From: Bacillus sp. UNC41MFS5
Lineage (GTDB): Bacteria > Bacillota > Bacilli > Bacillales_B > DSM-18226
DNA length: 64,000 bases
NCBI RefSeq assembly: GCF_000686805.1
Contig: NZ_KK366017.1
Coordinates: 186,001-250,000, forward strand
Direction of reading: 5' to 3'
Part shown: piece by piece, positions 4,533-64,000 of the stretch
Layout: the number at the start of each line of letters is the position of its first letter
How positions within the stretch are numbered: position 1 is the first letter of the stretch
Position numbers and translations under genes: made by a program
The notes under the pieces: model-generated
Told to the model about the DNA's origin: nothing
The model's database searches: none
What the model saw: the letters and a program-made list of their open reading frames with translations, nothing else

Positions 4533-6082
4533 TGAGTCTATTGGCATTATCCTTATTCCTGGGAATCATCGCTTTAACATTGGTCATCACATATTTTTCA
4601 TCTAAAAGAACAAAAAATGCGAGTGATTTTTACACAGCCGGAGGCGGATTGACAGCATGGCAAAACGGTTTGGCGGTAGCCGGAGATTTTATGTCTGCCG
4701 CTTCGTTCTTGGGGATTACAGGAGCGATCGCTTTAGTGGGGTTTGATGGATTTTACATGAGTATTGGAAATCTAGTTGCCTTTTTATTTTTGCTCTATTT
4801 GGTTTCTGAGCCACTTCGAAATCTAGGAAAGTACACAATGGCCGACATGATTACGGCTCGCTTCAATTCCAAAAAAGTTCGAGGAGTAGCTGCCGTTAAC
4901 ACGCTGGTTATCTCCATCTTTTATATGATTGCTCAGCTTGTTGGGGCAGGCGGACTTATTAAGTTGCTGCTTGGAATCGATTATGCGACATCCGTTTTAC
5001 TTGTAGGTATCCTGATGACGATTTACGTTATTTTTGGCGGAATGACAGCTACCAGCTGGGTGCAAATTACAAAAGCTGTTTTATTGCTTATCGGATCATT
5101 TGTTATAACGTTTATTGTGTTTGCTAAATTTGACTTCAGTGTTATGAATATGTTTCAGCATGTAAAATCCGCAACGCCATTTGGAGAAGAGTTCTTGAAT
5201 CCAGGAAACAAATACAAAGATGGGTTGGATATGATTTCCTTTAATATGGCACTTGTCTTAGGAGCAGCAGGTTTACCGCATCTTCTTGTTCGTTTCTTTA
5301 CAGTAAAAGATGCAGCGACGGCACGTAAATCAGTCGTTTATTCAACATGGTTCATTGGGGTATTTTTCATTATGACCATTTTTTTAGGCTTCGGTGCAGC
5401 GGCATTTGTAGGATTTGAAAATATTGTTGCTGCGAATCCTGCTGGAAACATGGCAGCACCATTGTTGGCGAAAACGATGGGCGGAGATTTTTTATTTGCC
5501 TTTGTTTCAGCAGTTGCTTTTGCTACCATTCTTGCGGTAGTTTCAGGTCTTGTGCTCACATCCGCATCTGCGTTTGCTCATGATATTTATGGAGAAATCA
5601 TTAAAGGTGGAAAAGTAACAGAAAAGCAGCAAGTATTTGTAGCACGTATTGCTTCCATCGGAGTAGCTGTTGTTTCCATTTTACTTGCATTGTCTGCCCA
5701 AAAATTAAATGTCGCTTTCTTGTCTGTATTGGCTCTTGGTATTGCTGCCAGTGCAAATCTTCCTGTAATATTATGCACAATTTATTGGAAGCGCTTTAAT
5801 TCAACAGGGGCTATTACAGGGATGCTGATTGGATTAATCAGCTCTGTTGTCCTTGTGTTATTGAGCCCGAATGTATGGAGTCCAACGCCGGGAGCCGCCA
5901 TTTTTACCGGGGAACCTATTTTCCCGATGCTAAATCCAACTATTTACACGGTGCCGCTAGGTTTCCTTGGCGCATATTTAGGAACAGTTCTGTCTAGAGG
6001 AAAATCGAATGCAGAAAGCTTTGCAGAAGTTTTATATAAATCAAACACGGGGTATGGTATTAGTGCTGCGAAAGATCATTGA
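4532..6082 (+). CDS. Sodium:solute symporter, acetate permease type (ActP/YwcA-like)
   Basis: A 516-residue multi-pass inner-membrane protein of the SSS family. The N-terminal DFYTAGGGLTAWQNGLAVAG block and the later TYIVFGGM-like and LVLTSASAFAHD blocks are the usual family signatures, and the length is typical. Linkage to the preceding DUF485 gene is characteristic of acetate or short-chain carboxylate permeases. The thiolase, thioesterase and fumarase around it make uptake of acetate-like carbon plausible, but the substrate is inferred. Confidence 0.85.
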   Translation: MSLLALSLFLGIIALTLVITYFSSKRTKNASDFYTAGGGLTAWQNGLAVAGDFMSAASFLGITGAIALVGFDGFYMSIGNLVAFLFLLYLVSEPLRNLGKYTMADMITARFNSKKVRGVAAVNTLVISIFYMIAQLVGAGGLIKLLLGIDYATSVLLVGILMTIYVIFGGMTATSWVQITKAVLLLIGSFVITFIVFAKFDFSVMNMFQHVKSATPFGEEFLNPGNKYKDGLDMISFNMALVLGAAGLPHLLVRFFTVKDAATARKSVVYSTWFIGVFFIMTIFLGFGAAAFVGFENIVAANPAGNMAAPLLAKTMGGDFLFAFVSAVAFATILAVVSGLVLTSASAFAHDIYGEIIKGGKVTEKQQVFVARIASIGVAVVSILLALSAQKLNVAFLSVLALGIAASANLPVILCTIYWKRFNSTGAITGMLIGLISSVVLVLLSPNVWSPTPGAAIFTGEPIFPMLNPTIYTVPLGFLGAYLGTVLSRGKSNAESFAEVLYKSNTGYGISAAKDH

Positions 6083-6143
6083 TTGAAAGCTTGAGATTAC
6101 TTGAACACCATGGGGCTTGAATATCACTAATAAGTGAAAAAGG

Positions 6144-6188
6144 TAAATCATTGAACAGGGGCGCTCTTTGCTCATGTTCAATGATTTA
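6144..6188. repeat. 14-bp perfect inverted repeat before the thioesterase gene
   Basis: TAAATCATTGAACA at 6144-6157 is exactly inverted at 6175-6188 with a 17-nt spacer. It sits 44 bp before the thioesterase start. No good T-run follows on the plus strand; on the minus strand the hairpin is followed by CCTTTTT. It may be an operator, an mRNA hairpin or a minus-strand terminator. Confidence 0.75.
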
Positions 6189-6231
6189 TGTGGTTATTAA
6201 TCCTACAAATAAAAATACAGGAGGAATCAAT

Positions 6232-6693
6232 ATGAAATCCAGTATGACAGAACAGGAAGTCCACAAAAGATATTACAAGCAAATTTTCGAAACGCTCGAA
6301 CAAGAGCCTTATGCCCAGTTTCTCGGGATGAAATTAATAGAGATGGGAGAAGGGACTGCAACTGCTGAGTTAGACGTAAAGGACCATATGTTGAATTCGC
6401 ACGGTACAGTTCATGGAGCTATTATCTTTTCTTTAGCTGACTATGTCTTTGCGGCAGCCAGTAATTCTTATGGGAAAACTTCTGTTGGATTATCAACAAA
6501 TGTTAATTTTATGTCTCCTGGCCGGAAAGGATCCCGTCTAAGGGCTATAGCTGTAGAAGAAAAGCGAAACAACCGTACGGCATGGTATAAAATCCATGTA
6601 GAAAGTGATGGAGAACTTTTAGCTACCATGGAAGCATTGGTTTACCGTAAAAGCCACTATTTTGTCCCAGTAGAAGAGAATGAAAGTAATTAA
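6232..6693 (+). CDS. paaI: PaaI-type hotdog-fold thioesterase
   Basis: A 153-residue acyl-CoA thioesterase of the PaaI group. The signature NSHGTVHGAIIFSLADYVF (residues about 57-75) carries the active-site loop and helix of the hotdog fold. PaaI enzymes hydrolyse ring-hydroxylated phenylacetyl-CoA, freeing CoA from dead-end products of the paa pathway (family knowledge), which fits the paa genes 4 kb to the left. The start at 6232 was chosen for the strong AGGAGG just upstream; the reading frame is open further upstream but lacks such a site. Confidence 0.8.
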   Translation: MKSSMTEQEVHKRYYKQIFETLEQEPYAQFLGMKLIEMGEGTATAELDVKDHMLNSHGTVHGAIIFSLADYVFAAASNSYGKTSVGLSTNVNFMSPGRKGSRLRAIAVEEKRNNRTAWYKIHVESDGELLATMEALVYRKSHYFVPVEENESN

Positions 6694-6714
6694 TTCCTAA
6701 AGCTCTACACTCTG

Positions 6715-6744
6715 AACTGCAGACAAGTGTCTGCAGTTTTTTTT
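6715..6744 (+). terminator. Terminator after the thioesterase gene
   Basis: An 11-bp perfect stem (6715-6725 with 6728-6738) with a tail of eight T residues beginning at the stem foot. Confidence 0.9.
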
Positions 6745-6828
6745 GATTATCGCCTTACTTACTTTAATAAAATAGATAGGAATGGGTATATATATTGAAG
6801 TATATGAATTTGTGAGGTGTGCTGATAA

Positions 6829-8211
6829 GTGGAGAATTATCGAATTGAAAAGGATACTCTTGGTGAGGTTCGTGTGCCCATTGATAAATATTGGGGTGCT
6901 CAAACACAACGGAGCAAGGACAATTTTAAAATTGGCTCAGAGAAAATGCCGTTGGAATTAATATATGGTTTGGTTTTTATTAAAAAGGCCGCAGCAATAG
7001 TAAATTTCCAATTAGGCAAGCTCAGTGAAAATAAAATGAAGGCGATTCAAAAAGTATGTGATTCTATTCATGCCGGAGATATGGATGAACATTTCCCACT
7101 TGTGGTTTGGCAGACAGGTAGCGGGACTCAATCCAACATGAACGTAAATGAAGTGATAGCCAACAAGGCAAATGAATATTTAAAGGATCTGGGTGCTGCA
7201 CATGAAAAAATCCATCCAAATGATGATGTCAATATGTCGCAAAGTTCCAACGATACCTTTCCAACAGCCATGCATATTGCTGCATATCAAAAAATCGTAG
7301 TAGAACTTCTTCCTGCAATATCAGAACTTAAAAATACTCTCCTGCAAAAGGAAAAGGATTTCTCTAAAATCATTAAAATCGGAAGAACACATTTACAGGA
7401 TGCAACACCACTGACACTGGGACAAGAGATTAGTGGATGGCGGTGGATGCTTGAAAAATGTGAAATGATGATAAATGAGGCAAGCCAATATCTGCTTGAT
7501 TTGGCAATCGGAGGAACGGCAGTTGGTACAGGAATCAACGCACCACCTTTTTTTGGTGACATGGTCGCTGAGCAAATTTCCATATTTACTGGATATCCAT
7601 TTCGGTCCTCAGAAAATAAATTTCATGCTTTAACAAGTCACGATGAGATTGTGCATATTCATGGTTCGCTTAAAGCTTTGGCCGCTGATTTAATGAAAAT
7701 TGCTAATGACATCCGTTGGCTGGCAAGTGGGCCTCGCAGTGGGATTGGAGAGATTAATATCCCGGCGAATGAGCCTGGCAGTTCAATTATGCCCGGAAAG
7801 GTAAATCCCACTCAAAGTGAAGCATTGACAATGATAACGTGCCAAATATATGGAAATGACGCTGCTATCGCTTTTGCGGCGAGTCAAGGAAATTTCGAGT
7901 TAAATGTATTCAAACCAGTTATTATTAATAATTTTATCCAATCGGTTAGACTTCTTTCAGATGGCATAAGATCCTTTAATAAAAATTGTGCCGTAGGTAT
8001 TCAGGCCAATGACGAGATTCTTAAAGAACATTTGAATCACTCATTGATGCTTGTTACAGCATTAAATCCTCATATTGGCTATGAAAAGGCAGCGGAAATT
8101 GCCAAATTAGCTTTCAAAGAAAATTGTTCTCTAAAGGAAGCAGCGATAAAATTAGATTATGTTACTGAAGACCAGTTTTCTAAATGGGTTAAGCCAGAAA
8201 ATATGATATGA
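6829..8211 (+). CDS. fumC: Fumarate hydratase, class II
   Basis: A 460-residue homotetrameric, iron-independent fumarase of the TCA cycle (fumarate to L-malate). The fumarase/aspartase signature [11 protein letters not shown] is near residue 317, with the N-terminal YWGAQTQRS block and the [14 protein letters not shown] substrate-binding block near residue 95. Length is normal. The start is GTG 6829 with GAGGTG upstream; no ATG fits the N-terminal alignment. The gene is monocistronic between two terminators. Confidence 0.95.
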
Positions 8212-8217
8212 AATTGA

Positions 8218-8243
8218 AAGCCCCTTCCAAATGGAAGGGGCTT
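8218..8243. terminator. Bidirectional terminator between fumC and the SASP gene
   Basis: An 11-bp stem (8218-8228 with 8233-8243) and an AAAT loop, lying between convergent genes. T-runs on both sides are modest. Confidence 0.75.
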
Positions 8244-8283
8244 AGCCATAATATTTATTTGTATTTACTTGGATTACTAAATA

Positions 8284-8487
8284 TTAGCGTTGGAATCCGC
8301 CAAGTTGAGACTCAGCCATTGCTACTAGACGTTTTGTAATTTCTCCACCAACAGATCCGTTGGCACGTGAAGTAGTGTCTGCACCAAGATTTACACCAAA
8401 TTCTGAAGCAATTTCATACTTCATTTGACTAAGAGCTTGCTCGACGCCTGGTACTAGAAGTTGATTAGAGTTGTTGTTACTTGCCAT
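8284..8487 (-). CDS. Alpha/beta-type small acid-soluble spore protein
   Basis: A 67-residue DNA-binding spore core protein that coats forespore DNA and protects it from UV and heat. It shows the conserved [10 protein letters not shown] segment containing the GPR protease cleavage site and the second conserved block [15 protein letters not shown]. The length matches the family. A GGAG site lies 12 nt before the ATG. Expression in the forespore under sigma-G is expected, but I could not place the promoter firmly. The position fits SspB (YheF) of the yhe cluster. Confidence 0.95.
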
Positions 8488-8541
8488 AGTTGAATAACAC
8501 TCCTCTTAATAAGTTTGGGGTCAGTATGGAGTTGAACCATA

Positions 8542-8739
8542 ATGGAGATTAAACCATTGCCGCCTAGGCCTAACCCATATTATCAATATTACTTTGATAA
8601 GCTTTCTACAAATTGGAGATTCATTTATAAAACTTTGGTTTGGCTGGATGAGTCGGACTTGCACCGGCTAATACCCTTTTTGGTTTCATCCATCGTGTTG
8701 TTGAATGGTTGCTTGCTTTGTAATACTTATTATGATTAA
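8542..8739 (+). CDS. Possible 65-residue protein of unknown function
   Basis: An open frame facing away from the SASP gene. It encodes a proline- and tyrosine-rich N-terminus (PPRPNPYYQYYF) and a hydrophobic stretch at about residues 46-60. The ribosome binding site is poor (GGAG 12 nt upstream) and I recognise no family. It overlaps the stretch that should contain the SASP promoter, so it may be spurious. Confidence 0.3.
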   Translation: MEIKPLPPRPNPYYQYYFDKLSTNWRFIYKTLVWLDESDLHRLIPFLVSSIVLLNGCLLCNTYYD

Positions 8740-8844
8740 AACGGAAAGACTTATTCGAGAAATTAATTAGTAATTTATTCCATTACATATGGCATGTAAG
8801 TTAACACAAACTAAGGTTATCAAATAAACAAAAGGGTGAATGGA

Positions 8845-9087
8845 ATGTCTGAATGCCCAGTATGTAATGGTTTTCGTGAAGCCTATTTATTATGTACAAA
8901 TTGCGGGGAGCCTATGATGGAAAGTGGTCGTCTAATGGATTTTTATGATGATTATAGTCCATATATGGAGATTGACTTAATGAAAATGGAAGATGGATAT
9001 CCTGATACAAATTCAGGTCATAAGTGTCCCCATGTGTATCGATGTCCTGCTTGTCATCTAGAAGAAGTATTTTTTATAAAAGAATAA
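8845..9087 (+). CDS. Small cysteine-rich (zinc-ribbon-like) protein
   Basis: An 80-residue protein with three Cys-x-x-Cys pairs, CPVC and CTNC near the N-terminus and CPAC near the C-terminus, plus a further Cys-Pro-His, likely binding one or two zinc ions. The start at ATG 8845 is preceded by AAAAGGG 8 nt upstream; an in-frame GTG at 8836 is less well placed. Function is unknown, and it stands alone before a terminator shared with msmX. Confidence 0.7.
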   Translation: MSECPVCNGFREAYLLCTNCGEPMMESGRLMDFYDDYSPYMEIDLMKMEDGYPDTNSGHKCPHVYRCPACHLEEVFFIKE

Positions 9088-9109
9088 GCCCTGCTAAGAA
9101 GCAGGGCTT
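9086..9109. terminator. Bidirectional terminator between the Cys-rich gene and msmX
   Basis: A 10-bp perfect stem (9086-9095 with 9100-9109) between convergent genes; it overlaps the stop codon of the left gene. Confidence 0.75.
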
Positions 9110-9124
9110 ATTGGTCCATATTTA

Positions 9125-10225
9125 TTAAGGGCGGATTCTTGATTCTGTTTCTTCATCAAAGAAATGTGCTTTATTCATATCAAATGCTAGTTCTAATGTA
9201 TCGCCTGGATGGATATCACCACGAGAATCAACGCGAGCTACAAAATCTTGACCGCCAATACTTGAATATATCATTAATTCTGCACCAGTTAACTCGGCAA
9301 CATCTACTTGAGCTTTAATTTTTGATCCAGCCGATGCATCAATGAAAACTGGCTCATCATGAATATCTTCTGGTCGTGTACCTAGGATAATTGATTTTCC
9401 AACATATCCTTGCTCGCGTAAATATTTCATTTTTCCTTCTGGAACAGCAAGCGCAGTATTTCCAATTACGAATTTTCCATCCTCTAGTTTTCCGTTGAAG
9501 AAGTTCATCGCAGGAGATCCGATAAAGCCGCCGACGAAGACATTCTCAGGCTTTTCATAAACTTCTTTAGGCGAACCTACTTGCTGAATGATTCCATCTT
9601 TCATAACGACTAGTCGTGTAGCCATTGTCATCGCTTCGGTTTGGTCATGTGTAACATAGATTGTAGTAGTATCTAAGCGGCGGTGAAGTTTAGCAATTTC
9701 AGCACGCATTTGAACACGAAGTTTTGCATCTAGGTTTGATAATGGTTCATCCATTAAGAATACTTTTGCATCACGTACAATCGCACGGCCTAATGCCACA
9801 CGCTGGCGTTGCCCACCTGAAAGAGCTTTAGGTTTACGAGTTAAGTAAGCCTCTAAACCAAGAATCTTTGCTGCGTCTTTTACCCGGCGGTCAATTTCAT
9901 CTTTTGGGAATTTACGAAGTTTTAAGCCAAATGCCATGTTATCATATACTGTCATGTGTGGATAAAGGGCATAGTTTTGGAAAACCATCGCGATATCACG
10001 ATCTTTTGGAGCTACATCGTTTACTCTTTTACCATCAATGTAGAAATCTCCTTTTGAAATATCTTCCAGACCAGCAATCATTCGAAGTGTCGTAGATTTT
10101 CCGCACCCTGATGGTCCTACAAACACGATAAATTCTTTATCTTCAATATGTAAATTGAAGTCTTGTACAGCTGTTACTTTATTATCATAAATTTTATAAA
10201 TATGATCTAATTTTAACTCTGCCAT
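9125..10225 (-). CDS. msmX: Multi-sugar ABC transporter ATPase MsmX/UgpC-like
   Basis: A 366-residue ATPase of the CUT1 carbohydrate-importer family. Seen: Walker A GPSGCGKST, signature LSGGQRQRV, Walker B VFLMDEPLSNLD, the switch His in VTHD, and a C-terminal MalK-type regulatory (OB/TOBE) domain from about residue 240. No permease or binding-protein gene is nearby, as expected for MsmX, which energises several separate sugar importers in B. subtilis. A GGGAGG site precedes the ATG. Confidence 0.9.
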   Translation of the reverse strand: MAELKLDHIYKIYDNKVTAVQDFNLHIEDKEFIVFVGPSGCGKSTTLRMIAGLEDISKGDFYIDGKRVNDVAPKDRDIAMVFQNYALYPHMTVYDNMAFGLKLRKFPKDEIDRRVKDAAKILGLEAYLTRKPKALSGGQRQRVALGRAIVRDAKVFLMDEPLSNLDAKLRVQMRAEIAKLHRRLDTTTIYVTHDQTEAMTMATRLVVMKDGIIQQVGSPKEVYEKPENVFVGGFIGSPAMNFFNGKLEDGKFVIGNTALAVPEGKMKYLREQGYVGKSIILGTRPEDIHDEPVFIDASAGSKIKAQVDVAELTGAELMIYSSIGGQDFVARVDSRGDIHPGDTLELAFDMNKAHFFDEETESRIRP

Positions 10226-10304
10226 TGTAATTCCTCCCTTTATCTTGTTAGTAATAGTTTACAAGTAGCAGAAGAAAATAGGTATGGACAGACTGCACAA
10301 AGAA

Positions 10305-10319
10305 TGAAAACGCTTTTTT
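10305..10319. promoter_or_regulatory. Possible CcpA cre-like site upstream of msmX
   Basis: TGAAAACGCTTTTTT matches the cre consensus TGWAANCGNTNWCA except for the last two bases. It is about 80 bp upstream of the msmX start. Chance occurrence is possible. Confidence 0.3.
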
Positions 10320-10329
10320 GGGCACTTTG

Positions 10330-11241
10330 TTATCTCTTTTGATTTTGTTCAAATAGAAGGCAAGCTAAAAAGACTGTAAAGGCTCCATAAAAATCCTTTA
10401 ATTGGATTCCAGACCTATCGATAAATTTATCAATTCGATATTGGAGTGTATTTCGATGGATGTATAATTTTTTTGCCGTCAAACTGGCATTTAAATTATT
10501 CTCAAGAAAAACTTTAATGGTCGAATACATCTCAGGATCATCATTAAAAATTTCGAATATTCCTTGATGGATCTTTGGTTTTAAATCCATCGGCAAGTGA
10601 TAAGCCACATATGCAGGAAGAACCCGTTCAAATGTAAAAATATTCATAAGGGAAACAAGATTGGTCAGGCCAAAGGAAAAATATTCTTTCTCAAGCAGGA
10701 ACTTTGACCGAAGTTGGTCGTTAAAGGAATTAAACTTTCCAATAAAAAAAGCGATTTTGACATAAAAGTCACTTTCTAAGGTTTCTGACATGGAAATCAA
10801 TTCTTCTTCCGTAAGTAAGACTATGGTGTCCTCTTCAATAATAATTCCTCGTCTTTTGTTCTCCCAGATGATGATGACTCCTTCAGTAAAGAACCCTTTT
10901 AATGCTGACTCAATCTCAAGTTGATTCGTATCATCTCCGTTAATTTGAAATTGAATGAACCGAAGATTTGTCTCAGCATTATAAGAGGGGGGAGGACCAT
11001 CCTCTAATAAATACGCATCCCATCCCTTGGTTACAGAATTTTGGACAATTGATGGATTCTCAACTAATTGATAAATCACTTGAAGGAGGGTTAATTCCTT
11101 TTCAGTTACCTCAGATTTAGGAATGCCAATCCATTCTTTTTCCATCTCGCTGAAAAATACATAATACTGTTCTGAATGCGTAATAGGTTGATCGGGAAAC
11201 AAAATGGAATTTTCATAAATAGACAATAATTTTCTAAGCAT
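10330..11241 (-). CDS. PucR-type helix-turn-helix regulator (YxkF-like)
   Basis: A 303-residue protein whose C-terminal ~60 residues (LNASLTAKKLYIHRNTLQYRIDKF) form the PucR/CdaR-type HTH, in which an N-terminal sensory region of unknown ligand precedes DNA binding. It lies upstream of and co-directional with msmX; from memory a similar regulator (yxkF) adjoins msmX in B. subtilis. The start was set at ATG 11241, which has GGGGAAA upstream; the ATG at 11256 has none. Regulation of msmX is inferred from position only. Confidence 0.7.
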   Translation of the reverse strand: MLRKLLSIYENSILFPDQPITHSEQYYVFFSEMEKEWIGIPKSEVTEKELTLLQVIYQLVENPSIVQNSVTKGWDAYLLEDGPPPSYNAETNLRFIQFQINGDDTNQLEIESALKGFFTEGVIIIWENKRRGIIIEEDTIVLLTEEELISMSETLESDFYVKIAFFIGKFNSFNDQLRSKFLLEKEYFSFGLTNLVSLMNIFTFERVLPAYVAYHLPMDLKPKIHQGIFEIFNDDPEMYSTIKVFLENNLNASLTAKKLYIHRNTLQYRIDKFIDRSGIQLKDFYGAFTVFLACLLFEQNQKR

Positions 11242-11320
11242 TTTTGATTTCCCCATTATAAAAAATTTTTAGTGTCTTCTAACATTATATCAGTAGTTAC
11301 TGAACCTATAAAATAATAAA

Positions 11321-11347
11321 GGCTAGCCAAGGTTAATTCGGCTAGCC
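11321..11347 (-). terminator. Minus-strand terminator after the yheE/small-gene unit
   Basis: GGCTAGCC at 11340-11347 pairs with GGCTAGCC at 11321-11328; on the minus strand an AT-rich TTTATTATTTT tail follows. It ends transcription of the minus-strand gene at 11368-11559. Confidence 0.7.
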
Positions 11348-11367
11348 AGTTCTTTGGGTATTTATTA

Positions 11368-11559
11368 TCAATCGCATTCATAGGGGGGTTGTTCTTCTTG
11401 TAGGTCACGGGCTTCTTCGATATTAGTTGACTCCTGACGGGAATGAACTGCCCCACCGGACATTCCTTCGTTAATCATTCGGTCAACATCCATAGACACT
11501 TTATCTCTGCCTTCATATGCAGATTCTGCATCAGTTCCCATGTTTTTTCCTTTGTCCAT
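11368..11559 (-). CDS. Small hydrophilic protein of unknown function
   Basis: 63 residues, highly charged, with DKVSMDVDRMINEGMSGG in the middle and an acidic, proline-containing C-terminus ending in Cys. The start was chosen at ATG 11559, since GGAAAGG is about 9 nt upstream. It follows yheE and the YheC/YheD genes on the same strand and is bounded by a terminator, so it may belong to the sporulation unit; I do not recognise the family. Confidence 0.6.
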   Translation of the reverse strand: MDKGKNMGTDAESAYEGRDKVSMDVDRMINEGMSGGAVHSRQESTNIEEARDLQEEQPPYECD

Positions 11560-11641
11560 CCTTATCATTCCTTTCCCAAAACTATATTTAGTTTTGCTGA
11601 AAAGGCAAGTTTTCATGCACGATGGTCATTCAAATTTTAGA

Positions 11642-11851
11642 TTATTCATATACATGGTAAAGCATGAGTTCATGGATTTGGCTCGATAATGCCTCAATCT
11701 CATCCTGTTCAGGCACATTTGTTGTCCATTCTATTTTCCCTGTTTGGTGATAAATTCCCGTCACCCGTTGCTTTTTATGATAAAAGGAAAAATTCCAGCC
11801 AGGTATATTTTTATTTTCAAATAATGGTTTAAATTGAAAGTGCAAGATCAT
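11642..11851 (-). CDS. yheE: YheE-like small protein
   Basis: A 69-residue soluble protein with aromatic-rich N-terminus (FQFKPLFENK, WNFSFYHKK) typical of the B. subtilis YheE family (about 72 residues). It lies 74 bp downstream of the last YheC/YheD gene, as in the yhe cluster. The ribosome binding site AAAGGAGG precedes the ATG. Function is unknown; a sporulation role is inferred from the cluster. Confidence 0.75.
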   Translation of the reverse strand: MILHFQFKPLFENKNIPGWNFSFYHKKQRVTGIYHQTGKIEWTTNVPEQDEIEALSSQIHELMLYHVYE

Positions 11852-11925
11852 CGCGAAATCCTCCTTTTAATATTCTTACTTATAGCTTAACTGGTTTGGG
11901 AAAATATTTAAATATGAATTTTCTG

Positions 11926-12972
11926 TCAGTTTTCATAACCGGAAAGTTGGAAGAAAATACGGCAAAGTTGCTCAATCTTCTTTTCTTCAATTTCCTCTTC
12001 ATCAAATCTCATTGGTTTGGAATTTACCTCGTAAATATAGTAATGGCCAGTCATACTTACCCCGGCATCAATAGAAAACTCTCCGAAATAGCCAAATCGA
12101 TCAGACAGTGCCATCCCTATTTCTGGAACAATCGCATCAATAAAACGATCATGCTCCTTGGTTTGTAAAATTTCATAGGGCAGGAGTCTACCGCCGGATG
12201 GAATATGGGTTGTAATATCTTGTGTCTGAGATTGCCGAATTCCAACTCCTGTTACAGTGTAACCACCGTCTTCTCCGTGGGCGAGGATACGAAAATCGAA
12301 GCGATTTCCCTTATACTTGGCTGATTTGATTTCAGCTTGTGCTAAATAGTTTTTTGCCAACAATTCCACACCGTGTTTTTCCCAAAAATGATCAAAGGAT
12401 TTAAAAAGTTCATGCTGGTGTATCCCGTCTAATTGAAGACCGGTAGCACTAGTTAGCCTTAAGCGAAGAATCCCTTTTCCTTTGGAAGATTGAGCAGGTT
12501 TTAAATAAAGGCTTTTATGCTCCTTTTGAAACAAGAACAAGTCCTTCTTCCCGTGGATAAGGATGGTTTCTGGCAGGAACGATTTCAGAAAGGGATGTTT
12601 TTTAAACACCTCATAGAGCTCATATTTATCAATAAAACATGGATTGAAATAAGGGATATTCTTCTCCTTTAAAATAGAAAAAAAATGCTGGCATTGTTCG
12701 TTTTGTTCTGACTTTCGGAAGGGTATCCGGTTATATACAATGTCTGGATAGCGAAATTTTTCTTTTATCCAGTGATTTTGTTCAGGTAAAAATGTATAGC
12801 CCGTAATATGGTCTTTACCAGCATCCTCTGGTATAAAAACAAAGCTTATTCCATTGTGTGAAATAAGCTTTTTTTGTAATGCTATAAAAAGCGGGCCATT
12901 ACCAGCAATAGAACCATCTGCTTTTCTTGCTGACAGAATTCCAACCTGAGGACCTGGATAATTGATTTTCAT
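11926..12972 (-). CDS. YheC/YheD-family ATP-grasp spore protein (fourth of four)
   Basis: 348 residues. N-terminal region with the family block PDIVYNRIPFRKSE (about residues 75-90), then FNPCFIDKYELYEVF, then an ATP-grasp domain with YLKPAQSSKGKGI (ATP-binding lysine and glycine loop) and, near the C-terminus, EVNSKPMRFDEE (metal-binding Glu/Asn). In B. subtilis these are endospore coat-associated proteins of unproven reaction; ATP-grasp enzymes join a carboxylate to an amine or thiol. Its ATG overlaps the stop of the preceding gene by 4 bp. Last of a run of four homologues transcribed from near 16.8 kb. Confidence 0.85.
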   Translation of the reverse strand: MKINYPGPQVGILSARKADGSIAGNGPLFIALQKKLISHNGISFVFIPEDAGKDHITGYTFLPEQNHWIKEKFRYPDIVYNRIPFRKSEQNEQCQHFFSILKEKNIPYFNPCFIDKYELYEVFKKHPFLKSFLPETILIHGKKDLFLFQKEHKSLYLKPAQSSKGKGILRLRLTSATGLQLDGIHQHELFKSFDHFWEKHGVELLAKNYLAQAEIKSAKYKGNRFDFRILAHGEDGGYTVTGVGIRQSQTQDITTHIPSGGRLLPYEILQTKEHDRFIDAIVPEIGMALSDRFGYFGEFSIDAGVSMTGHYYIYEVNSKPMRFDEEEIEEKKIEQLCRIFFQLSGYEN

Positions 12973-14333
12973 TGGATTAACTCCTCTAGGTGTAATAAGG
13001 ATTGTTCGGTAAGAAAGACGGCAAATGCAATTGATAATTTTCGGGTTAGCAAATCAAATTCTTTTAATTCAGGATGAATAAAGATGGATCTTCCAGGTTT
13101 GGAATTTGCTTCGAAGAGCCAAACTTCTCCATTTCGGTCGATACCTAAATCAAATCCAATCTCACCAATTATTCCTTCTACATGCCGATCCATTGCGCTG
13201 CTTAAAAGCAAGGCGGCGTTGGAGAGTTTCTGTGAATATAGTGAACATTCCTCATTGGAAAAAATCTCTTCCATTGTCTTAATATCTCCACCGCTTCTTG
13301 AATGGGTGGTCACGCTGCCAGGTCCTGCTATCTTCGCTGCAATCGCAGATACATGCCAATTTCCCATATCATCTTTATTGGTGTGGACTCTAAAATCAAT
13401 GGAACGGGATTCGGTTCGGAGTAGATTAATCCCTTGCTGTACTAGCATTTTTTCAAGGGATTGATTGGCAAATACGTTTCCCATCAAGCTTTCTAAACTT
13501 GAAAATTTCCTCAGACGGTTTACATTGCTTTTATCTTGGTATCGACAGTAATAATCATCGCTGTGTTTGTCGTAAATAATTTGGTGAACGCCTAAGCCGA
13601 GACTGCCATTTTTAGGTTTGATAAAAACATGGCCATAGGTGGAAAGCATCGTTTCGATTGAGGAGAAGGATGTAAACGGCAATGTATCTGGAAGGAAATT
13701 AGACACGGTTTCATCTTGAATAAGTCTTTCATGAATTTCAAGTTTGTTAAAAAATCCAGGATTGTACCAAGGGATAAGATATTCTTTTTGCAATCGCTCT
13801 CTCACTTTTATTAATCTTGGGTTATTTTCACTTCTTCGGTTGGGAAGTCGATCATAAATAACATTTGGAAAGGGAATATCAACCGTTTCCCAACTGTTAT
13901 TATGATAAAAGTGCCCTTCAATGGTTCCTCGATGCCAATCAATATGCTGTTCTCCAAACACAAATGGTAAGGCACCCACCATTTTATTAACGGAAAGGAG
14001 TTTTGAGAAAAACTGTGTTCGATCGCCAATCGGTTCCAATGGCAAGGAAGTAAATCCTGCTGTAAAAATACCTACAAGTGGACCGATAATTAGACTTTGG
14101 TTAGATAAGAAAACATGAAGTGGAATGTTGAAACTAGGAAATTGAAGTGCTTGTTGAATTTCCCGGCTGATTGAAATCCGATCATCTTGATCAGGATGTG
14201 GGATAAAATCTACTTCTATCGATCTTGAACCAAAGGAAATTCGTGATAACTCTTTTTCTCTAATTATTTCAGGCGGACAGAAAACTACTAATTGATCATT
14301 TTGAGCAACTTCAATGAGATAATGTTTTCTCAT
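12969..14333 (-). CDS. yheD: YheD-like ATP-grasp spore protein (third of four)
   Basis: 454 residues: an N-terminal ~95-residue domain also present in the first gene of the run, a central block PNVIYDRLPNRRSENN near residue 160, then YNPGFFNKLEIHERL, and an ATP-grasp domain with FIKPKNGSLGLGVHQI and the C-terminal FEANSKPGRS metal-binding motif. It overlaps the gene before it by 23 bp and the one after by 4 bp. AGGAAGAG lies before the ATG. Spore-coat association is from the B. subtilis family; catalytic function is inferred. Confidence 0.85.
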   Translation of the reverse strand: MRKHYLIEVAQNDQLVVFCPPEIIREKELSRISFGSRSIEVDFIPHPDQDDRISISREIQQALQFPSFNIPLHVFLSNQSLIIGPLVGIFTAGFTSLPLEPIGDRTQFFSKLLSVNKMVGALPFVFGEQHIDWHRGTIEGHFYHNNSWETVDIPFPNVIYDRLPNRRSENNPRLIKVRERLQKEYLIPWYNPGFFNKLEIHERLIQDETVSNFLPDTLPFTSFSSIETMLSTYGHVFIKPKNGSLGLGVHQIIYDKHSDDYYCRYQDKSNVNRLRKFSSLESLMGNVFANQSLEKMLVQQGINLLRTESRSIDFRVHTNKDDMGNWHVSAIAAKIAGPGSVTTHSRSGGDIKTMEEIFSNEECSLYSQKLSNAALLLSSAMDRHVEGIIGEIGFDLGIDRNGEVWLFEANSKPGRSIFIHPELKEFDLLTRKLSIAFAVFLTEQSLLHLEELIQ

Positions 14334-15414
14334 AATAGCTCTTCCTTTCTTTTAGATCCATTTGACTTAGGTGCTTCCCATAAAGCAAAGGGGCAAGGGT
14401 TAAAGTCTCCTTTATATCTGGCTGTGTATGAAGGAGGACCTTTCGACCAGGCTTCGAATTGATATCCAGAATCCAAATTGATTCATCTTTTGCAATTCCG
14501 ATATCAATGCCAATCTCAAATAATGGTAAAAAGGCATTTTCTAGTATAGGTGGAAGATTAGAAAGAATGTAATCTAATTCCTGATGGATGTACTCCTTTT
14601 TAGCAGGTAAAAAAGAGGTTGACCAATCCAAATAAGGAATAATCGAACCACCAGCACTTAAATTGGAAAGGATTCCCCCAGTACTCCCGACTCGAATACC
14701 TCTGCCCATTTCTCCCCATTTTCCATCAATCCCTTTCTGTAGGAGGATCCGAATGTCAAATGGCTGTAGGTCATCATTGGATAATTCTAAATATGGCTGC
14801 ATAAGGTAGGGACGCTTGCTAATAAGTGGGTGCAGCCATTTATTTAGTTTGGTTTCATTTGGAAAGATTCGTGAGATAATATTCTTGTTTTTTTCTGTTT
14901 TAACATGAAAGGATTTGTTGTTTTTTTTCAAATAGTAAATACCATTTCCTTGAGAGCCATTAATTGGCTTTAAAATCATTCTTTTCTTGGCAGTTAATTC
15001 ATTTAACACGATGCTAGAATTGGAAACCGCCTGAGTCAGGGGCAAATAAGCTGATAAAACTGTACTTTTTAATACGTCATAGAGTTCGAGTTTATTAGGC
15101 AGTCCATATCCTAAAAAGGTTATTTCGGGTCTGTTCTTTAGCCAAGATACAATCGGAATGCACTGCTTGGAGTAGTCATCATCCCCGTAAAAACAACGAT
15201 CATAAATAAGAGTTGGAATGGGAAACTCCTTGTCTGCCCAAGATTTTGATTGTGAAATGAATTTTTTTCCTTTTACTTGTAATGTAAGTGGATTTACATT
15301 GGCAGGGGAGAAGCGATAGCATTCCACTCCACAGGGTTCTGCAAAGTTTGCAATGTCGTTGATATAGGTCTGCTCACTGTCCAAATTTATGGTCATTATT
15401 CCAAAGGCAATCAA
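14311..15414 (-). CDS. yheC: YheC-like ATP-grasp spore protein (second of four)
   Basis: 367 residues, the length of B. subtilis YheC. Seen: N-terminal FGIMTINL strand, PTLIYDRCFYGDDDYS near residue 75, the ATP-grasp block LKPINGSQGNGIYYL and the terminal DINSKPGRK motif. It starts at TTG 15414, with GGAGGA 8 nt upstream, one base after the stop of the first gene. It lacks the extra N-terminal domain found in the first and third genes, so the run alternates long and short types. Confidence 0.85.
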   Translation of the reverse strand: MIAFGIMTINLDSEQTYINDIANFAEPCGVECYRFSPANVNPLTLQVKGKKFISQSKSWADKEFPIPTLIYDRCFYGDDDYSKQCIPIVSWLKNRPEITFLGYGLPNKLELYDVLKSTVLSAYLPLTQAVSNSSIVLNELTAKKRMILKPINGSQGNGIYYLKKNNKSFHVKTEKNKNIISRIFPNETKLNKWLHPLISKRPYLMQPYLELSNDDLQPFDIRILLQKGIDGKWGEMGRGIRVGSTGGILSNLSAGGSIIPYLDWSTSFLPAKKEYIHQELDYILSNLPPILENAFLPLFEIGIDIGIAKDESIWILDINSKPGRKVLLHTQPDIKETLTLAPLLYGKHLSQMDLKERKSYYEKTLSH

Positions 15415-15415
15415 T

Positions 15416-16798
15416 TTACTGGTCCTCCTTTACAAAAGTCGAATCGAATGCAAGCAGCGTACAAAATTGAATGAGAGCCTTCGCAGATGGTCTGATTTTG
15501 CCTAATCCATCTTCAAAGTTTTTCGAGGGTTTAGAGTTTACTTCAATGATCCACGGCTTTCCGTCTTGGTCTACGCCAATGTCGATGCCAAGTTCACCAG
15601 TTATCCCTGTTTGAGAGTTACTAATAATGGATGCTGTTTCGACTGCTAATTCTTTCATATGTGTAAGCACCTCTAAAGCGTTCTTAGGTCCAAGACAAGT
15701 TCGCAGAACCTCTAACGGTCTAAGCATCTTTCCACCTCTTGCAATGTTGGAAACGAACTCATCTTTTGCAGCTATCCTTGCCACAATTGAGGTAACTTGC
15801 CAATGGTTGTTCAGATTTTTGTGACATAGTACCCTAAAGTCCATGGAACATGAGTCATACGCCACTAATTCAATACCTTGTTGAATAATATAAAATCGAT
15901 TATGGAGAATAGGCTTGATTAGGTTGTGTATTTCGTCTAAGGAGTATTGGTAGCTAGAGTTGTCGTTAAGTAATGCAATCGAGGTTTGTAAAGTGTAGTG
16001 GATTTCATCTTCTTTTTTCAACTTGATAATATTTCTTCCTTGGCTGCCATTAACCGGCTTTATAAATACCGTTTCACATTCGTCGGTAAGTTCATACAAA
16101 TGCTCTTTTGTGTAGATTTTTGTTTTTGGTAAGAAGGGGAGGAGGTGTTTTTCTTGAAATATTTGATTATATACTTCCCATTTTGAAAGGAAACGTTCAT
16201 TAAACAAAGGAATCATCATGGTTTCAAGTCTTTTACGAAATTGCTTAAATGGGACAGATTGTTCAAGTTTACGGGAATGTATACGATTATAAATCACATC
16301 CGGTATTGGATGTTCAAACGATCTCCATTTCCCATTTAACAGGTAATAGCCTTGATTTAAAAATTCCTCATAGGAAAAAACATAAAAAAAGCCACCAATT
16401 TCAGTAATTCCTTGATGAAGTTCCTCGCAAAAAGCATGAATAGAACGAAAGTGTGGTTCTTCCTGTTTAGTGGAAGGGAAATCAATTACTAGTCCAATCA
16501 CAGGTCCGAGTTCGAGTGTTCGAAGAGCTTCCCGATAGATGGCTTGAAATTTAAAACTCTGGGTGGGTAGGCAAAAATTCTTGAGAATATTTTCAGGAAT
16601 AAGCATCAAATTTTGGGGGTCCAGGTCTACTGGTTGAACCGCTGTTTGTATTGCCTTTTTTCCTAACTTAATATTTAATTGAAGGTTCTTGTTTAATCCT
16701 AAACTAGTAAACAAATGGTTGGATATTTGTACCATGCTGTCATTCGTATTTTTAGGTTTTCTTGCTTTAATGGTAACCTGAGTTAATGGAAAAGACAT
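15416..16798 (-). CDS. YheD-like ATP-grasp spore protein (first of four)
   Basis: 460 residues. It has an extra N-terminal domain of about 100 residues, then PDVIYNRIHSRKLEQS, FNERFLSKWEVYNQI, the ATP-grasp block FIKPVNGSQGRNII and EVNSKPSKNF. The start was set at ATG 16798, because GAGGA lies 6 nt upstream, while earlier candidates are unsupported. It heads the minus-strand run and is divergent from yheA; mother-cell-specific transcription is likely but the promoter was not identified. Confidence 0.85.
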   Translation of the reverse strand: MSFPLTQVTIKARKPKNTNDSMVQISNHLFTSLGLNKNLQLNIKLGKKAIQTAVQPVDLDPQNLMLIPENILKNFCLPTQSFKFQAIYREALRTLELGPVIGLVIDFPSTKQEEPHFRSIHAFCEELHQGITEIGGFFYVFSYEEFLNQGYYLLNGKWRSFEHPIPDVIYNRIHSRKLEQSVPFKQFRKRLETMMIPLFNERFLSKWEVYNQIFQEKHLLPFLPKTKIYTKEHLYELTDECETVFIKPVNGSQGRNIIKLKKEDEIHYTLQTSIALLNDNSSYQYSLDEIHNLIKPILHNRFYIIQQGIELVAYDSCSMDFRVLCHKNLNNHWQVTSIVARIAAKDEFVSNIARGGKMLRPLEVLRTCLGPKNALEVLTHMKELAVETASIISNSQTGITGELGIDIGVDQDGKPWIIEVNSKPSKNFEDGLGKIRPSAKALIQFCTLLAFDSTFVKEDQ

Positions 16799-16976
16799 AA
16801 ACATTCCTCGATTTCTATCTATATTGGAACCATTATTCCTTATGGGCATTAGTTGATATAGTAATGTATGTAACACTAATCGAGATGGTGATTTTAACAT
16901 TCTCGCATTTTGGTGAATAGTTTGTTATAGTTGATTCGAATTAGAAAAGCGTTTGATTAAAAAGGAGTGGATACCA

Positions 16977-61862: not shown

Positions 61863-62084
61863 TTAAGCATTAAGTGCAATCCCTTGATCGTAAACATCTG
61901 AATCAGTTGTATTGGTGGAACTTACATTATTTTGAAGCTGTAAGCTTTCCCCAGTGTTAAAGGAACCAGCGCCAGAAAATGTTTTTGCGGTAGAAAATGG
62001 CATGATTTTATATACATCGCCAATATGGAAGACCGAACTGCTGCCAAGTGTAATGACCTGTGCAACTCCAACAATTGCTGGCAT
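61863..62084 (-). CDS. gerPA: Spore germination protein GerPA
   Basis: 73 residues: MPAIVGVAQVITLGSSSVFHIGD and STAKTFSGAGSFNTG, paralogous to GerPF. First gene of the operon. The start is ATG 62084 with AAGGGTG 6 nt upstream. A CATACATA sequence about 45 bp upstream on the minus strand could be the -10 of a sigma-K promoter, but the -35 is unclear. Confidence 0.9.
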   Translation of the reverse strand: MPAIVGVAQVITLGSSSVFHIGDVYKIMPFSTAKTFSGAGSFNTGESLQLQNNVSSTNTTDSDVYDQGIALNA

Positions 62085-62330
62085 TTTCAACACCCTTTTT
62101 TTCATAGTATCTTCTACATCCTATGTATGGGCAAAGGTAATGTGATTGATACGCCCAAAATTATTGAAATCAAGAATCGTATACGCTTTTTAATATTCAT
62201 TTGTAGAGTTATAAATTAAAAATAATAATAATTACCTACTTGTTTGTGCGAAAAATGGTAAATAAGAAGGGTTTTCGATTATTCGAAAAGGGACTATTAT
62301 ATGAGTAAGAGATCAGTCGGAAATAAACAC

Positions 62331-62424
62331 TGTTTCTCGATAAAGGCAAACCTGATGAAAATCAGAGACGCAAAGCTACAGGGGCTAAGGTGCATTTGCA
62401 CTAGGCCAGCCAGTTACCGAAAGA
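62331..62424 (+). ncRNA. Cyclic di-GMP-I (GEMM-I) riboswitch aptamer
   Basis: Conserved elements in order: P1 5' strand TTTCTCGATA, GGCAAACC, the tetraloop hairpin GATGAAAATC, GACGCAAAGCTA, GGGGCTAAGG, a small variable hairpin (GTGCATTTGCAC), GGCCAGCC and the P1 3' strand TTACCGAAAG. The ligand-contacting G in the GCAAA region and C in GCCAGCC are kept. It binds c-di-GMP. A terminator-like hairpin follows at 62499, then cpaF, so control of cpaF by c-di-GMP is inferred. Confidence 0.95.
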
Positions 62425-62498
62425 TTAGGGTGTTTCATAATGAATATTCTATGTCTGCATAGGTGTTCTATGTATCTATGGATATTCTATGAATTTTA

Positions 62499-62530
62499 TC
62501 CCCCCTTTGGTAAAGGCGGGGCTATTTCTA
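62499..62530 (+). terminator. Expression-platform terminator of the riboswitch
   Basis: CCCCCCTTT (62500-62508) pairs with AAAGGCGGGG (62512-62521) with one bulge and a 3-nt loop; CTATTTCTATTT follows, a modest T-rich tail. It lies 75 nt past the aptamer and just before the cpaF ribosome binding site, so it could instead act at translation. Confidence 0.65.
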
Positions 62531-62544
62531 TTTCACGGAGGTGA

Positions 62545-63639
62545 AAACTAATCAGCTACTTAACCTGTTTTGGACCCATAAATCCCCTTATTTTAGATGA
62601 AGATGTTTCAGAGGTTATGGTAAATGGACCTAACCAGGTGTACTGTGAACGAAAAGGAAAATTGGTATTAACGTCAGTACAATTCCGTGACAATGAACAT
62701 GTCATGACTATGATCGACAAAATTCTTACCCCACTTGGATGGAGAATCAATGAAAGTTCGCCAATGGTAGATGCTAGGCTGCCTGATGGCTTACGTGTTA
62801 ATGCCATCATTCCTCCCCTTGCATTAAATGGACCAGCCATTACAATCAGGAAATTTTCAAAGGAACCCTACGAGATTGAAGATTTAATCGACTTTGGAAC
62901 AATGACAGAGGAAGTCGCCATCTTTTTGGATGCATGTGTGAAAACCCGATTAAATATGTTTGTCAGTGGAGGAGCGGGTTCTGGTAAAACAACCACTCTC
63001 AATGCCCTTTCCAATTTTATCCCTGATGAAGAAAGAATCGTAACTGTTGAGGATGCAGCTGAGATTCAGTTGGGACAGGATCAAGTAATATCACTAGAGC
63101 TTCAACCTTCCGAAATAAAAGGTAAAAGAGCCATTTCGATTCGGGATCTTCTCAAGAAATCGTTACGAATGAGACCTGACCGTGTTATTATCGGAGAAGT
63201 CCGAGGTGGAGAAGCGCTTGATATGCTTCAGGCAATGAATTCAGGCCATGATGGTTCACTTGCTACAGGGCACTCATATAGTCCAAGGGATATGATTAGC
63301 CGTTTGGAAACAATGGTCCTTTTAGCCGGAGTGAATAATTCTATTAATGCCATACGAGAGCAAATTGCAAGTGCAATCGATGTGATTATACAGCAAACTC
63401 GTTTAATGGATGGAACAAGGAAAATTATCAATATTACTGAAGTTCAAGGAATGGAAGGAGAAAATATCGTTCTGCAAGACATCTTTTCCTTTAAACAAAA
63501 AGGACTTAATTCTGAGGGGAAAATTATTGGACAACTTATACCGACTGGTGTCCGCCCTAAATTTTATGAACGCCTTGAGGCATCAGGGATTCATATTCCG
63601 GCGACATTGTTTAAAGAAAATAAAGTCCAGTGGCATTAA
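62545..63639 (+). pseudogene. cpaF: CpaF/TadA-family pilus/secretion ATPase lacking its N-terminal domain
   Basis: The homologous reading frame runs from 62545 (just after a TGA at 62542) to 63639. It has Walker A GGAGSGKTTTL, VTVEDAAEIQL, Walker B RVIIGEVRGGEALDML and the His box GHDGSLATGHS, so the ATPase core is intact. The usual ~80-100-residue N-terminal helical domain of CpaF is absent. A strong GGAGGTG at 62537-62543 is followed 7 nt later by ATC, not a standard start; the first ATG (62617) cuts into the conserved GPINPLILDEDVSEV region and lacks a ribosome binding site. No other tad/pilus gene is present. Either a shortened functional gene with unusual initiation or a remnant. Confidence 0.75.
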
Positions 63640-63834
63640 TTTATGAATACTAAAGGGCTGATTTCCTAGTAGATTTAGGGTTCGGCCTTTTTTAATAAAG
63701 ATGAATCCATAATTGATAGATTGTATTCCTATGTTTGTTACTATATTTGACTTACTTTTTTTCGTGTTTATTAACTGTTTATGGTATGATAAGGTTCGAA
63801 TTAAAAGAAATTTCATACATAAGGAGGAACTATA

Positions 63835-64000
63835 TTGATTCACGGACATATCACGGCTTGGCTTTTAGCATTAATCTTATTTATTGTGGCACTTTTTTTA
63901 CATAAGGGTGGAAAAGAAAAAGGTGCAAAAATTGTTAAAATGATTTTACGAGTATTATATTTGCTTATTATCGCAACAGGTGTAGGACTCCTATTTTCGG
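63835..64000 (+). CDS. yisL: DUF1516 membrane protein YisL (start only, cut by window edge)
   Basis: The first 55 codons of a small membrane protein: IHGHITAWLLALILF, a KGGKEKGAKIVKMILR loop and a second helix, matching YisL (DUF1516). The start is TTG 63835 with AAGGAGGA upstream. TTGACT at 63747 with TATTAA 16 nt later is a possible promoter. Confidence 0.85.
   Translation, partial: MIHGHITAWLLALILFIVALFLHKGGKEKGAKIVKMILRVLYLLIIATGVGLLFS

What the first reader, a model, noticed from the sequence alone, without database searches (positions are those of the whole stretch)
62331..63639. c-di-GMP-I riboswitch controlling an orphan CpaF/TadA ATPase
A complete GEMM-I aptamer is followed by a terminator-like hairpin and then a single CpaF-family ATPase, with no other pilus or secretion gene before yisL. 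c-di-GMP control of Tad/Flp pilus genes is plausible, but here the ATPase is alone, set between gerP and yisL. It could be the surviving end of a deleted tad locus or an ATPase that works with pilus components encoded elsewhere.
Basis: partly seen in the sequence, partly recalled or inferred. Interest (0 to 1): 0.75.

Follow-up and report, generated by a model that had tools for sequence, protein, structure and literature searches.

The report
Riboswitch-controlled leftover of a pilus operon
A Bacillus-like bacterium has lost a whole pilus-building operon except for its c-di-GMP-sensing RNA switch and a shortened pilus motor gene, and many relatives have kept the same pair, which hints that the leftover motor protein has been given a new job.

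Summary
A full-length GEMM-I aptamer (62335-62421; 83.5 bits, E 5.8e-15) precedes a terminator and one CpaF-type ORF ending at 63639. The ORF lacks about 114 N-terminal residues of CpaF and has no ATG/GTG/TTG at its Shine-Dalgarno.

In 61 genomes of the genus, the same gerP-yisL interval holds the leader with a tad operon (7) or with cpaF material alone (24); 29 others with a readable interval have neither. The window is a deletion remnant in which leader and cpaF survive together. The best tree needs seven separate reductions, four or five well supported.

After truncation the coding sequence stayed under purifying selection: dN/dS 0.20-0.24 in the window's trio, median 0.28 in a 13-species clade with a ~200-residue "mini-CpaF". 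Fifteen of 24 cpaF-only genomes, including the window's closest relative, have no TadB/TadC, so the product is not a Tad motor there.

The aptamer's 3' strand can pair with the terminator's 5' arm, predicting that c-di-GMP turns the gene off. What the remnant does is inferred; decay is the main rival. New variant of a known kind.

The parts
62263..62303 (+). conserved block upstream of the leader, presumed promoter region (TATTAT at 62295-62300)
   Evidence: alignment of 32 rows, window included; a sigma-70-type consensus scan found no site here on this strand, so the sigma factor is not identified
62335..62421 (+). c-di-GMP-I (GEMM-I) aptamer
   Evidence: Rfam RF01051, 83.5 bits, E 5.8e-15, full length
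62414..62423 (+). TTACCGAAAG: aptamer 3' strand, also the 5' strand of the predicted antiterminator
   Evidence: exact in 28 of 30 aligned leaders; its exact complement CTTTCGGTAA is present in 22 of 30, the window not among them
62500..62533 (+). intrinsic terminator (stem 62500-62521, interrupted U-tract 62522-62533); 62505-62513 CTTTGGTAA is the antiterminator 3' strand, one C shorter than in most relatives
   Evidence: not reported by the consensus scan
62537..62543 (+). Shine-Dalgarno GGAGGTG, apparently inherited from the lost first gene (DUF192) of the operon
   Evidence: same motif with 7 nt before the DUF192 start in L143 (TTG); similar in the other operon loci
62551..63639 (+). 5'-truncated cpaF: 362 codons from ATC 62551, or 340 from ATG 62617; lacks about 114 N-terminal residues of CpaF
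   Evidence: PF00437 E 2.5e-61; alignment with full-length CpaF; dN/dS 0.20-0.24 among three orthologues
63652..63691 (+). intrinsic terminator after cpaF, followed by a T run
   Evidence: -18.2 kcal/mol, z -3.50; the G052 orthologue gives -19.9, z -4.40. Not reported by the consensus scan
61863..62105 (-). gerPA-like gene, left flank of the interval (context, not part of the unit)
Evidence: ORF; syntenic in relatives.
63835..63999 (+). yisL (5' part), right flank of the interval (context)

Best explanation
The locus is the remnant of a c-di-GMP-riboswitch-controlled tad (Flp pilus) operon that sat between gerP and yisL. Shown by comparison: DUF192 through cpaE plus the first ~114 codons of cpaF are missing on one side, and tadB/tadC on the other, leaving leader, cpaF core and terminator as one apparent unit. 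Shown: leader and cpaF (whole or part) occur together in every leader-bearing gerP-yisL interval examined, and the shortened coding sequences stayed under purifying selection where this can be tested (window trio, mini clade). Inferred from the RNA: the aptamer's 3' strand pairs either within the aptamer (P1, recalled) or with the terminator's 5' arm, so ligand binding should free the terminator and c-di-GMP should switch the gene OFF. Inferred, weakest step: the leftover P-loop protein no longer drives a Tad pilus, because TadB/TadC are absent from the closest genomes. It more likely acts as a stand-alone nucleotide-dependent partner or modulator of another secretion-type ATPase machine (ComG, or PilB/PilC where present), made when c-di-GMP is low.
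For: Riboswitch. Ancestral operon at the same site (Pfam names; Flp pilin ORF read). Of 61 genomes of the genus, 31 have the leader in this interval and 31 of 31 have cpaF material (7 with the operon, one of them inferred from two contigs; 24 cpaF-only); of the other 30, 29 have a readable gerPA-yisL interval and 0 of 29 has a cpaF match at E <= 1e-3. Operon tips interleave with reduced tips on the tree. Substitutions by codon position, window vs G052: 19, 6 and 45; trio dN/dS 0.20-0.24; mini clade median 0.284 over 78 pairs, 13 of 13 ORFs open. 62 protein clusters of the mini form, Walker A lysine in 62 of 62. Mini-clade identity: 0.96 for 5' part plus aptamer, 1.0 and 0.98 for antiterminator strand and terminator, 0.81 and 0.80 for linker and spacer, 0.89/0.92/0.78 for codon positions 1/2/3. 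No TadB/TadC-type T2SSF hit in 15 of 24 cpaF-only genomes (all hits listed).
Against: The window's gene has no canonical start codon after its Shine-Dalgarno, and its U-tract and antiterminator are weaker than in most relatives. dN/dS of 0.2-0.3 is well above 0.03-0.06 for operon cpaF and above most flanking genes. Different lineages keep complementary pieces: G038 and G055 keep only the N-terminal half, the 13 mini species only the P-loop half, so no single protein function explains all cases, and single-genome forms cannot be tested for selection. Close relatives by flanking genes, G012, G041 and G042, lost everything, so the unit is dispensable. Nine of 24 cpaF-only genomes do have a TadB/TadC pair elsewhere. 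Covariation support for the antiterminator is slight and in G052 the fold before the terminator does not form it. In B. thuringiensis a class-I switch, Bc1, did not change expression with c-di-GMP, and is said there to have turned a reporter on in earlier work (PMC11218506, passages).
Confidence: 0.62

Rival explanations
1. Slow pseudogene decay: the window's cpaF fragment is non-functional debris left when the operon was deleted, and the riboswitch is a relic that has not yet eroded.
For: No ATG/GTG/TTG start at the Shine-Dalgarno. A one-base loss in the antiterminator, shared by the three trio members. Relaxed dN/dS compared with operon cpaF. Clean loss in G012, G041 and G042. Complementary fragments kept in different lineages.
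Against: The reduced ORFs of the 24 cpaF-only genomes are open. Fixing omega at 1 worsens the likelihood by 2dlnL 57.7 for the trio and 213.3 for the mini clade (the order of the fixed parameters in that model string was assumed). In the mini clade spacer DNA and third codon positions are clearly more diverged than the riboswitch elements and codon positions 1-2. Leader and cpaF occur together.
Confidence: 0.3
2. A spare ATPase for a Tad system encoded elsewhere in the same genome, regulated separately by c-di-GMP.
For: Nine of 24 cpaF-only genomes have a TadB/TadC-type pair elsewhere: G033, G035, G004, G022, G023, G038, G025, G039, G055. The trio protein keeps the P-loop, the Asp-box and the Walker-B-like GEVR/GEIR stretch (motif names recalled).
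Against: G052 (2 T2SSF domain hits in one ComGB-like frame) and G043 (4 hits: a PilC-like and a ComGB-like frame) have no TadB/TadC, and 15 of 24 cpaF-only genomes in all lack one.
Confidence: 0.08
3. One old reduced allele (leader plus cpaF) spread between species by recombination in the gerP and yisL flanks, so the reductions are not independent.
For: Site and leader are the same throughout. In the cpaF nucleotide tree some placements disagree with the flank tree, for example G034 with G048 (97), and several deep nodes in both trees are weak.
Against: Lengths and break-points differ between lineages (363, 472, 408, 378, 393, 363/355, 352, 200-202, 150 and 146 aa). The reduced G065 cpaF is sister to the operon cpaF of G028 with support 100 in the nucleotide tree (87 in the protein tree), as in the flank tree (100).
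Confidence: 0.15

Closest known systems
c-di-GMP-I (GEMM-I) riboswitches, Rfam RF01051
   Same: full-length covariance match and a terminator-type expression platform; 4-12 copies in each of the 11 genomes scanned with this model (six, five)
   Different: the expression platform of this leader is conserved while the operon below it has been whittled to one gene or gene piece; predicted OFF, whereas the B. cereus-group Bc1 leader is described differently (PMC11218506, passages)
CpaF/TadA hexameric ATPase of Tad (Flp) pili, e.g. PDB 8rjf, 8rkd, 9e24
   Same: best solved relative by sequence (E 1.5e-108, query residues 5-348); the model of the mini form also matches it best (8rjf, TM 0.73 normalised by the query)
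   Different: N-terminal ~114 residues missing; no Tad partner genes between leader and yisL, and no TadB/TadC in the nearest genomes
Riboswitch-led complete tad operons of Neobacillus relatives (L143, L144, L145, L147, L148, L149)
   Same: same interval, leader 84-90% identical, cpaF 75-77% identical in DNA
   Different: these keep the tad genes (gene names checked by Pfam on L143 and L147 only); the window keeps only part of cpaF

Membership tests
c-di-GMP-I riboswitch | covariance-model match over the whole aptamer above the curated threshold | tested here: met
   RF01051, 83.5 bits vs 35, positions 1-87 of 87
c-di-GMP-I riboswitch | expression platform coupled to the aptamer | tested here: met
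   aptamer 3' strand complementary to the terminator 5' arm: exact complement in 22 of 30 leaders; the window and its two orthologues have a one-base-shorter version. The pairing hardly varies, so covariation support is slight (2 of 46 predicted pairs with double changes, neither in the antiterminator)
c-di-GMP-I riboswitch | binds c-di-GMP and changes expression | not testable with these tools
   needs in-line probing or in vitro transcription; GGDEF domains are abundant in the two orthologue genomes, G052 (14 matches) and G043 (12)
CpaF/TadA ATPase | T2SSE ATPase core with P-loop | tested here: met
   PF00437 E 2.5e-61; P-loop GGAGSGKT in the translation
CpaF/TadA ATPase | curated NCBIfam TadA-family model TIGR03819 at its cut-off | tested here: inconclusive
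   283.5 bits vs 373.15; a full-length Neobacillus CpaF (P0004) also falls short, at 334
CpaF/TadA ATPase | N-terminal region ahead of the ATPase core | tested here: not met
   alignment begins at about residue 115 of full-length CpaF
Tad (Flp) pilus system | Flp pilin, prepilin peptidase, TadB and TadC with the ATPase | tested here: not met
   no other tad gene between leader and yisL in the window; no TadB/TadC-type T2SSF hit in G052 or G043. Not testable for the window's own genome

The most novel reading that the evidence does not exclude
In Neobacillus, a riboswitch-controlled Tad motor gene has repeatedly been cut loose from its pilus operon and kept as a stand-alone, c-di-GMP-repressed P-loop protein. 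One outcome is a conserved ~200-residue mini-CpaF family that has lost the N-terminal domain and the Asp-box segment and works in a new, non-Tad role.
Probability: 0.4. Interest if true: 0.78.

Novelty: new variant of a known kind. Interest (0 to 1): 0.6.

Why it matters
The series (complete operon, whole cpaF alone, trimmed cpaF, mini-CpaF, empty interval) lies in one genus at one site. That makes it a natural experiment on what a riboswitch does after its operon is lost, and on how a hexameric secretion motor can turn into a different protein. If the mini-CpaF has a role, it would be a c-di-GMP-controlled P-loop protein with no known partner. Database names for it are those of a pilus ATPase or CpaF family protein, which misleads in the 8 of 13 mini-CpaF genomes without TadB/TadC.

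Tried and rejected
Origin by plasmid: a distant search of the plasmid collection gave 13 records with partial matches, the best covering 49% of the query at 64% identity. Decay with stop codons: not seen in the 13 mini species, 13 of 13 open. A codon-model run timed out and was repeated on a fixed tree; the program did not print omega, so pairwise Nei-Gojobori values are quoted. In one search the gerPF rows were left out of my comparison: the full-operon set mixed in a paralogue (pN 0.695), and the trio value, from two sequences, was 0.298; the mini-clade gerPF value was 0.058. Covariation for the antiterminator is weak because the helix hardly varies, so the OFF prediction rests on complementarity and conservation. 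Unconstrained folds do not show the aptamer's P1; the P1 pairing and the identity of the ligand-contacting C (position 92 of the Vc2 structure) are recalled. A sigma factor for the upstream block was not identified. Searches for print on this association: c-di-GMP + riboswitch + Tad pilus + Bacillus, 0 papers; CpaF + riboswitch, 5; c-di-GMP-I riboswitch + pilus + Bacillus, 3; orphan riboswitch + pseudogene, 2; CpaF + orphan + Tad + Bacillus, 2; Neobacillus + Tad pil, 1; c-di-GMP riboswitch + type IV pili + tight adherence, 1; riboswitch + Flp pilus, 7. I saw passages of PMC11218506 and only the listings of the rest, so I claim only that these listings showed me nothing on this association.

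Full report
WHAT IS THERE. The window's only Rfam hit at gathering thresholds is a full-length c-di-GMP-I aptamer at 62335-62421 on the plus strand (83.5 bits, E 5.8e-15). A terminator-like hairpin follows at 62500-62521, then a Shine-Dalgarno, then one ORF matching PF00437 (E 2.5e-61). Behind the ORF lies a second hairpin with a T run at 63652-63691 (-18.2 kcal/mol, z -3.50), so leader, gene and terminator look like one transcription unit. The leader hairpin alone is no better than shuffles (z -0.81), and the consensus scan reported neither hairpin. gerP genes flank the unit on the left and yisL on the right.

THE GENE IS A FRAGMENT. Full-length CpaF is 472-483 aa in the eight relatives aligned that keep it whole. 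The window's ORF aligns from about residue 115 of it. Upstream, the frame is closed by TGA at 62542-62544, overlapping the Shine-Dalgarno, and there is no ATG, GTG or TTG before 62617. In the operon of L143 the same Shine-Dalgarno serves the first gene, DUF192, with 7 nt before its TTG. In the window and its two orthologues (G052, G043) ATC stands at that spacing. Initiation at ATC would be weak (recalled), so either a 340-aa protein from 62617 or poor expression is likely. The closest database relatives, P0001 and P0002, share the truncation; P0001's frame runs on upstream through the leader, and P0002 is listed as starting at a methionine inside the fragment.

WHERE IT COMES FROM. I searched the 61 genomes held for the genus of a Neobacillus muris genome and read the interval. 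Operons stand behind the same leader: DUF192, a Flp pilin ORF, prepilin peptidase (PF01478), TadE (PF07811), TadG-like (PF13400), RcpC/CpaB (PF16976), a CpaE-like ParA ATPase, CpaF, and two T2SSF proteins, TadB and TadC (Pfam on L143; pilin read). In several loci a fumarylacetoacetate hydrolase (PF01557, L147) stands before yisL. Six operons lie on single stretches (L143, L144, L145, L147, L148, L149). A seventh, in G050, is inferred from two contigs (L173, L174).

THE PATTERN IN THE GENUS. Of 61 genomes, 31 have the leader in the gerP-yisL interval, and 31 of 31 have cpaF or part of it: 7 with operon, 24 with cpaF material only (2 orthologues of the window; 4 with whole or trimmed cpaF; 3 strongly diverged; 13 mini-CpaF; 2 with only the N-terminal half). 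Among the other 30, one (G015) has no gerPA beside its yisL-like hit. Of the remaining 29, 16 have a gap of 153-400 bp, 12 have only the hydrolase, and one has TadC plus hydrolase; none has leader or cpaF at E <= 1e-3. The query held both leader and cpaF, but leader-only loci would also have been found; in this interval none was seen. Two further leader hits that I fetched, in G018 and G053, lie elsewhere.

INDEPENDENCE. On a tree of addA, gerPC and gerPA the operon tips interleave with reduced tips. Under loss without regain the best tree needs seven reductions. Some nodes are weak (56-76); four or five reductions rest on well-supported nodes, notably the trio beside G048 and G065 beside G028. 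The cpaF trees agree for G065 with G028, but the nucleotide tree places G034 with G048, so some recombination is possible, and deep nodes are weak. In the reduced loci genes are missing on both sides of cpaF, which one deletion cannot do.

SELECTION. For the window, G052 and G043, dN/dS is 0.20-0.24 with dS 0.14-0.17. Differences between the window and G052 at codon positions 1, 2 and 3 are 19, 6 and 45. In the 13 mini species the median over 78 pairs is 0.284 (range 0.187-0.391), and 13 of 13 ORFs are open. Fixing omega at 1 lowers the likelihood strongly in both sets (2dlnL 57.7 and 213.3, parameter order assumed). These values are higher than for operon cpaF (0.03-0.06 in the 2 of 3 pairs with finite dS) and than flanking addA, gerPC, gerPA and yisL (0.04-0.15 in the mini clade, 0.06-0.11 in the trio, gerPF left out as told in Tried and rejected). 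Constraint is relaxed but present. In the mini clade, mean pairwise identity is 0.96 in 5' part plus aptamer, 1.0 and 0.98 in antiterminator strand and terminator, 0.81 and 0.80 in linker and spacer, and 0.89, 0.92 and 0.78 at the three codon positions.

THE MINI-CpaF. These proteins keep the native MGLL-type start of CpaF but have lost most of the N-terminal region, a segment between the P-loop and the Walker-B-like stretch that includes the Asp-box, and the C-terminal end (motif names recalled). A database search found 62 clusters of this form among the 120 best hits (P0121-P0182, 79-100% identity over the whole query, 178-254 aa); below them come two shorter 92-95% pieces and then hits of 63% and less. 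The Walker A lysine is in 62 of 62, the following T in 55 of 62, and the His-box H in 60 of 62. A model built on 39 aligned sequences has mean pLDDT 78.3, with residues 11-33 under 50, and matches CpaF best among solved structures (8rjf, E 2.2e-15, TM 0.73 on the query). The window's protein is not of this type; it keeps the whole core.

WHAT IT COULD WORK WITH. A T2SSF-domain search of the 24 cpaF-only genomes, all hits listed, shows that 15 have no TadB/TadC-type pair and nine have one elsewhere. G052, G014, G058 and G030 have only a ComGB-like frame; the other 11 of the 15 have PilC-like and ComGB-like frames. The PilC, ComGB and TadB/TadC labels are my reading of frame length and domain number. 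Among the 13 mini species, 8 lack and 5 have TadB/TadC. c-di-GMP signalling is present in G052 and G043: 14 and 12 GGDEF matches and 5 and 7 GEMM-I copies.

HOW THE SWITCH LIKELY WORKS. TTACCGAAAG (62414-62423), the aptamer's 3' strand, is the exact complement of CTTTCGGTAA in the terminator's 5' arm. The first is exact in 28 and the second in 22 of 30 leaders. The two strands are nearly invariant while the linker between them varies (0.99 and 0.95 against 0.74). In unconstrained folds of the RNA before the terminator is complete, this antiterminator forms in 16 of the 17 leaders whose terminator pattern was recognised, out of 21 given; G052 is the exception. Ligand should hold the 3' strand in the aptamer and let the terminator form: OFF. 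The window's version has lost one C and has an interrupted U-tract, so its control is probably leaky. In G055 the terminator is gone and the aptamer abuts the cpaF Shine-Dalgarno, suggesting translational control there.

VERDICT. The strongest new points are the repeated co-retention of leader and cpaF and the conserved mini-CpaF. The weakest is function, above all for the window's own start-less copy, where decay remains a serious rival.

Noticed in passing
L171 (G055), 5114-5551 (-) and the stretch just upstream of it: The aptamer is fused directly to the native cpaF Shine-Dalgarno and start with no terminator; the ORF is a 146-aa N-terminal half of CpaF without a P-loop. This looks like a change from transcriptional to translational control.
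   Followed up: partly
L203 (G062), 9288-10172: A lone TadC plus hydrolase between gerP and yisL, with no leader and no cpaF: a different end state of the same operon.
   Followed up: no
P0003 (database protein, 422 aa): Starts like DUF192 and continues as CpaF, apparently an in-frame fusion across the deleted part of the operon (read by eye).
   Followed up: no
window 62263-62303 and the same place in relatives: A TAGTAGGATA-like block, diverged in the window itself, lies a few tens of bases upstream of the leader in most of the 32 aligned rows, including reduced loci; the sigma factor or regulator is not identified.
   Followed up: partly
window 11926-16900 (-): Four consecutive ORFs that look like the ATP-grasp spore-coat YheC/YheD type (name recalled, not searched).
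   Followed up: no
L160 (G018), 5543-13315: A GEMM-I-like leader also precedes a DUF192-led tad operon outside the gerP-yisL interval, so c-di-GMP control of tad operons in these genomes may not be limited to this site.
   Followed up: no
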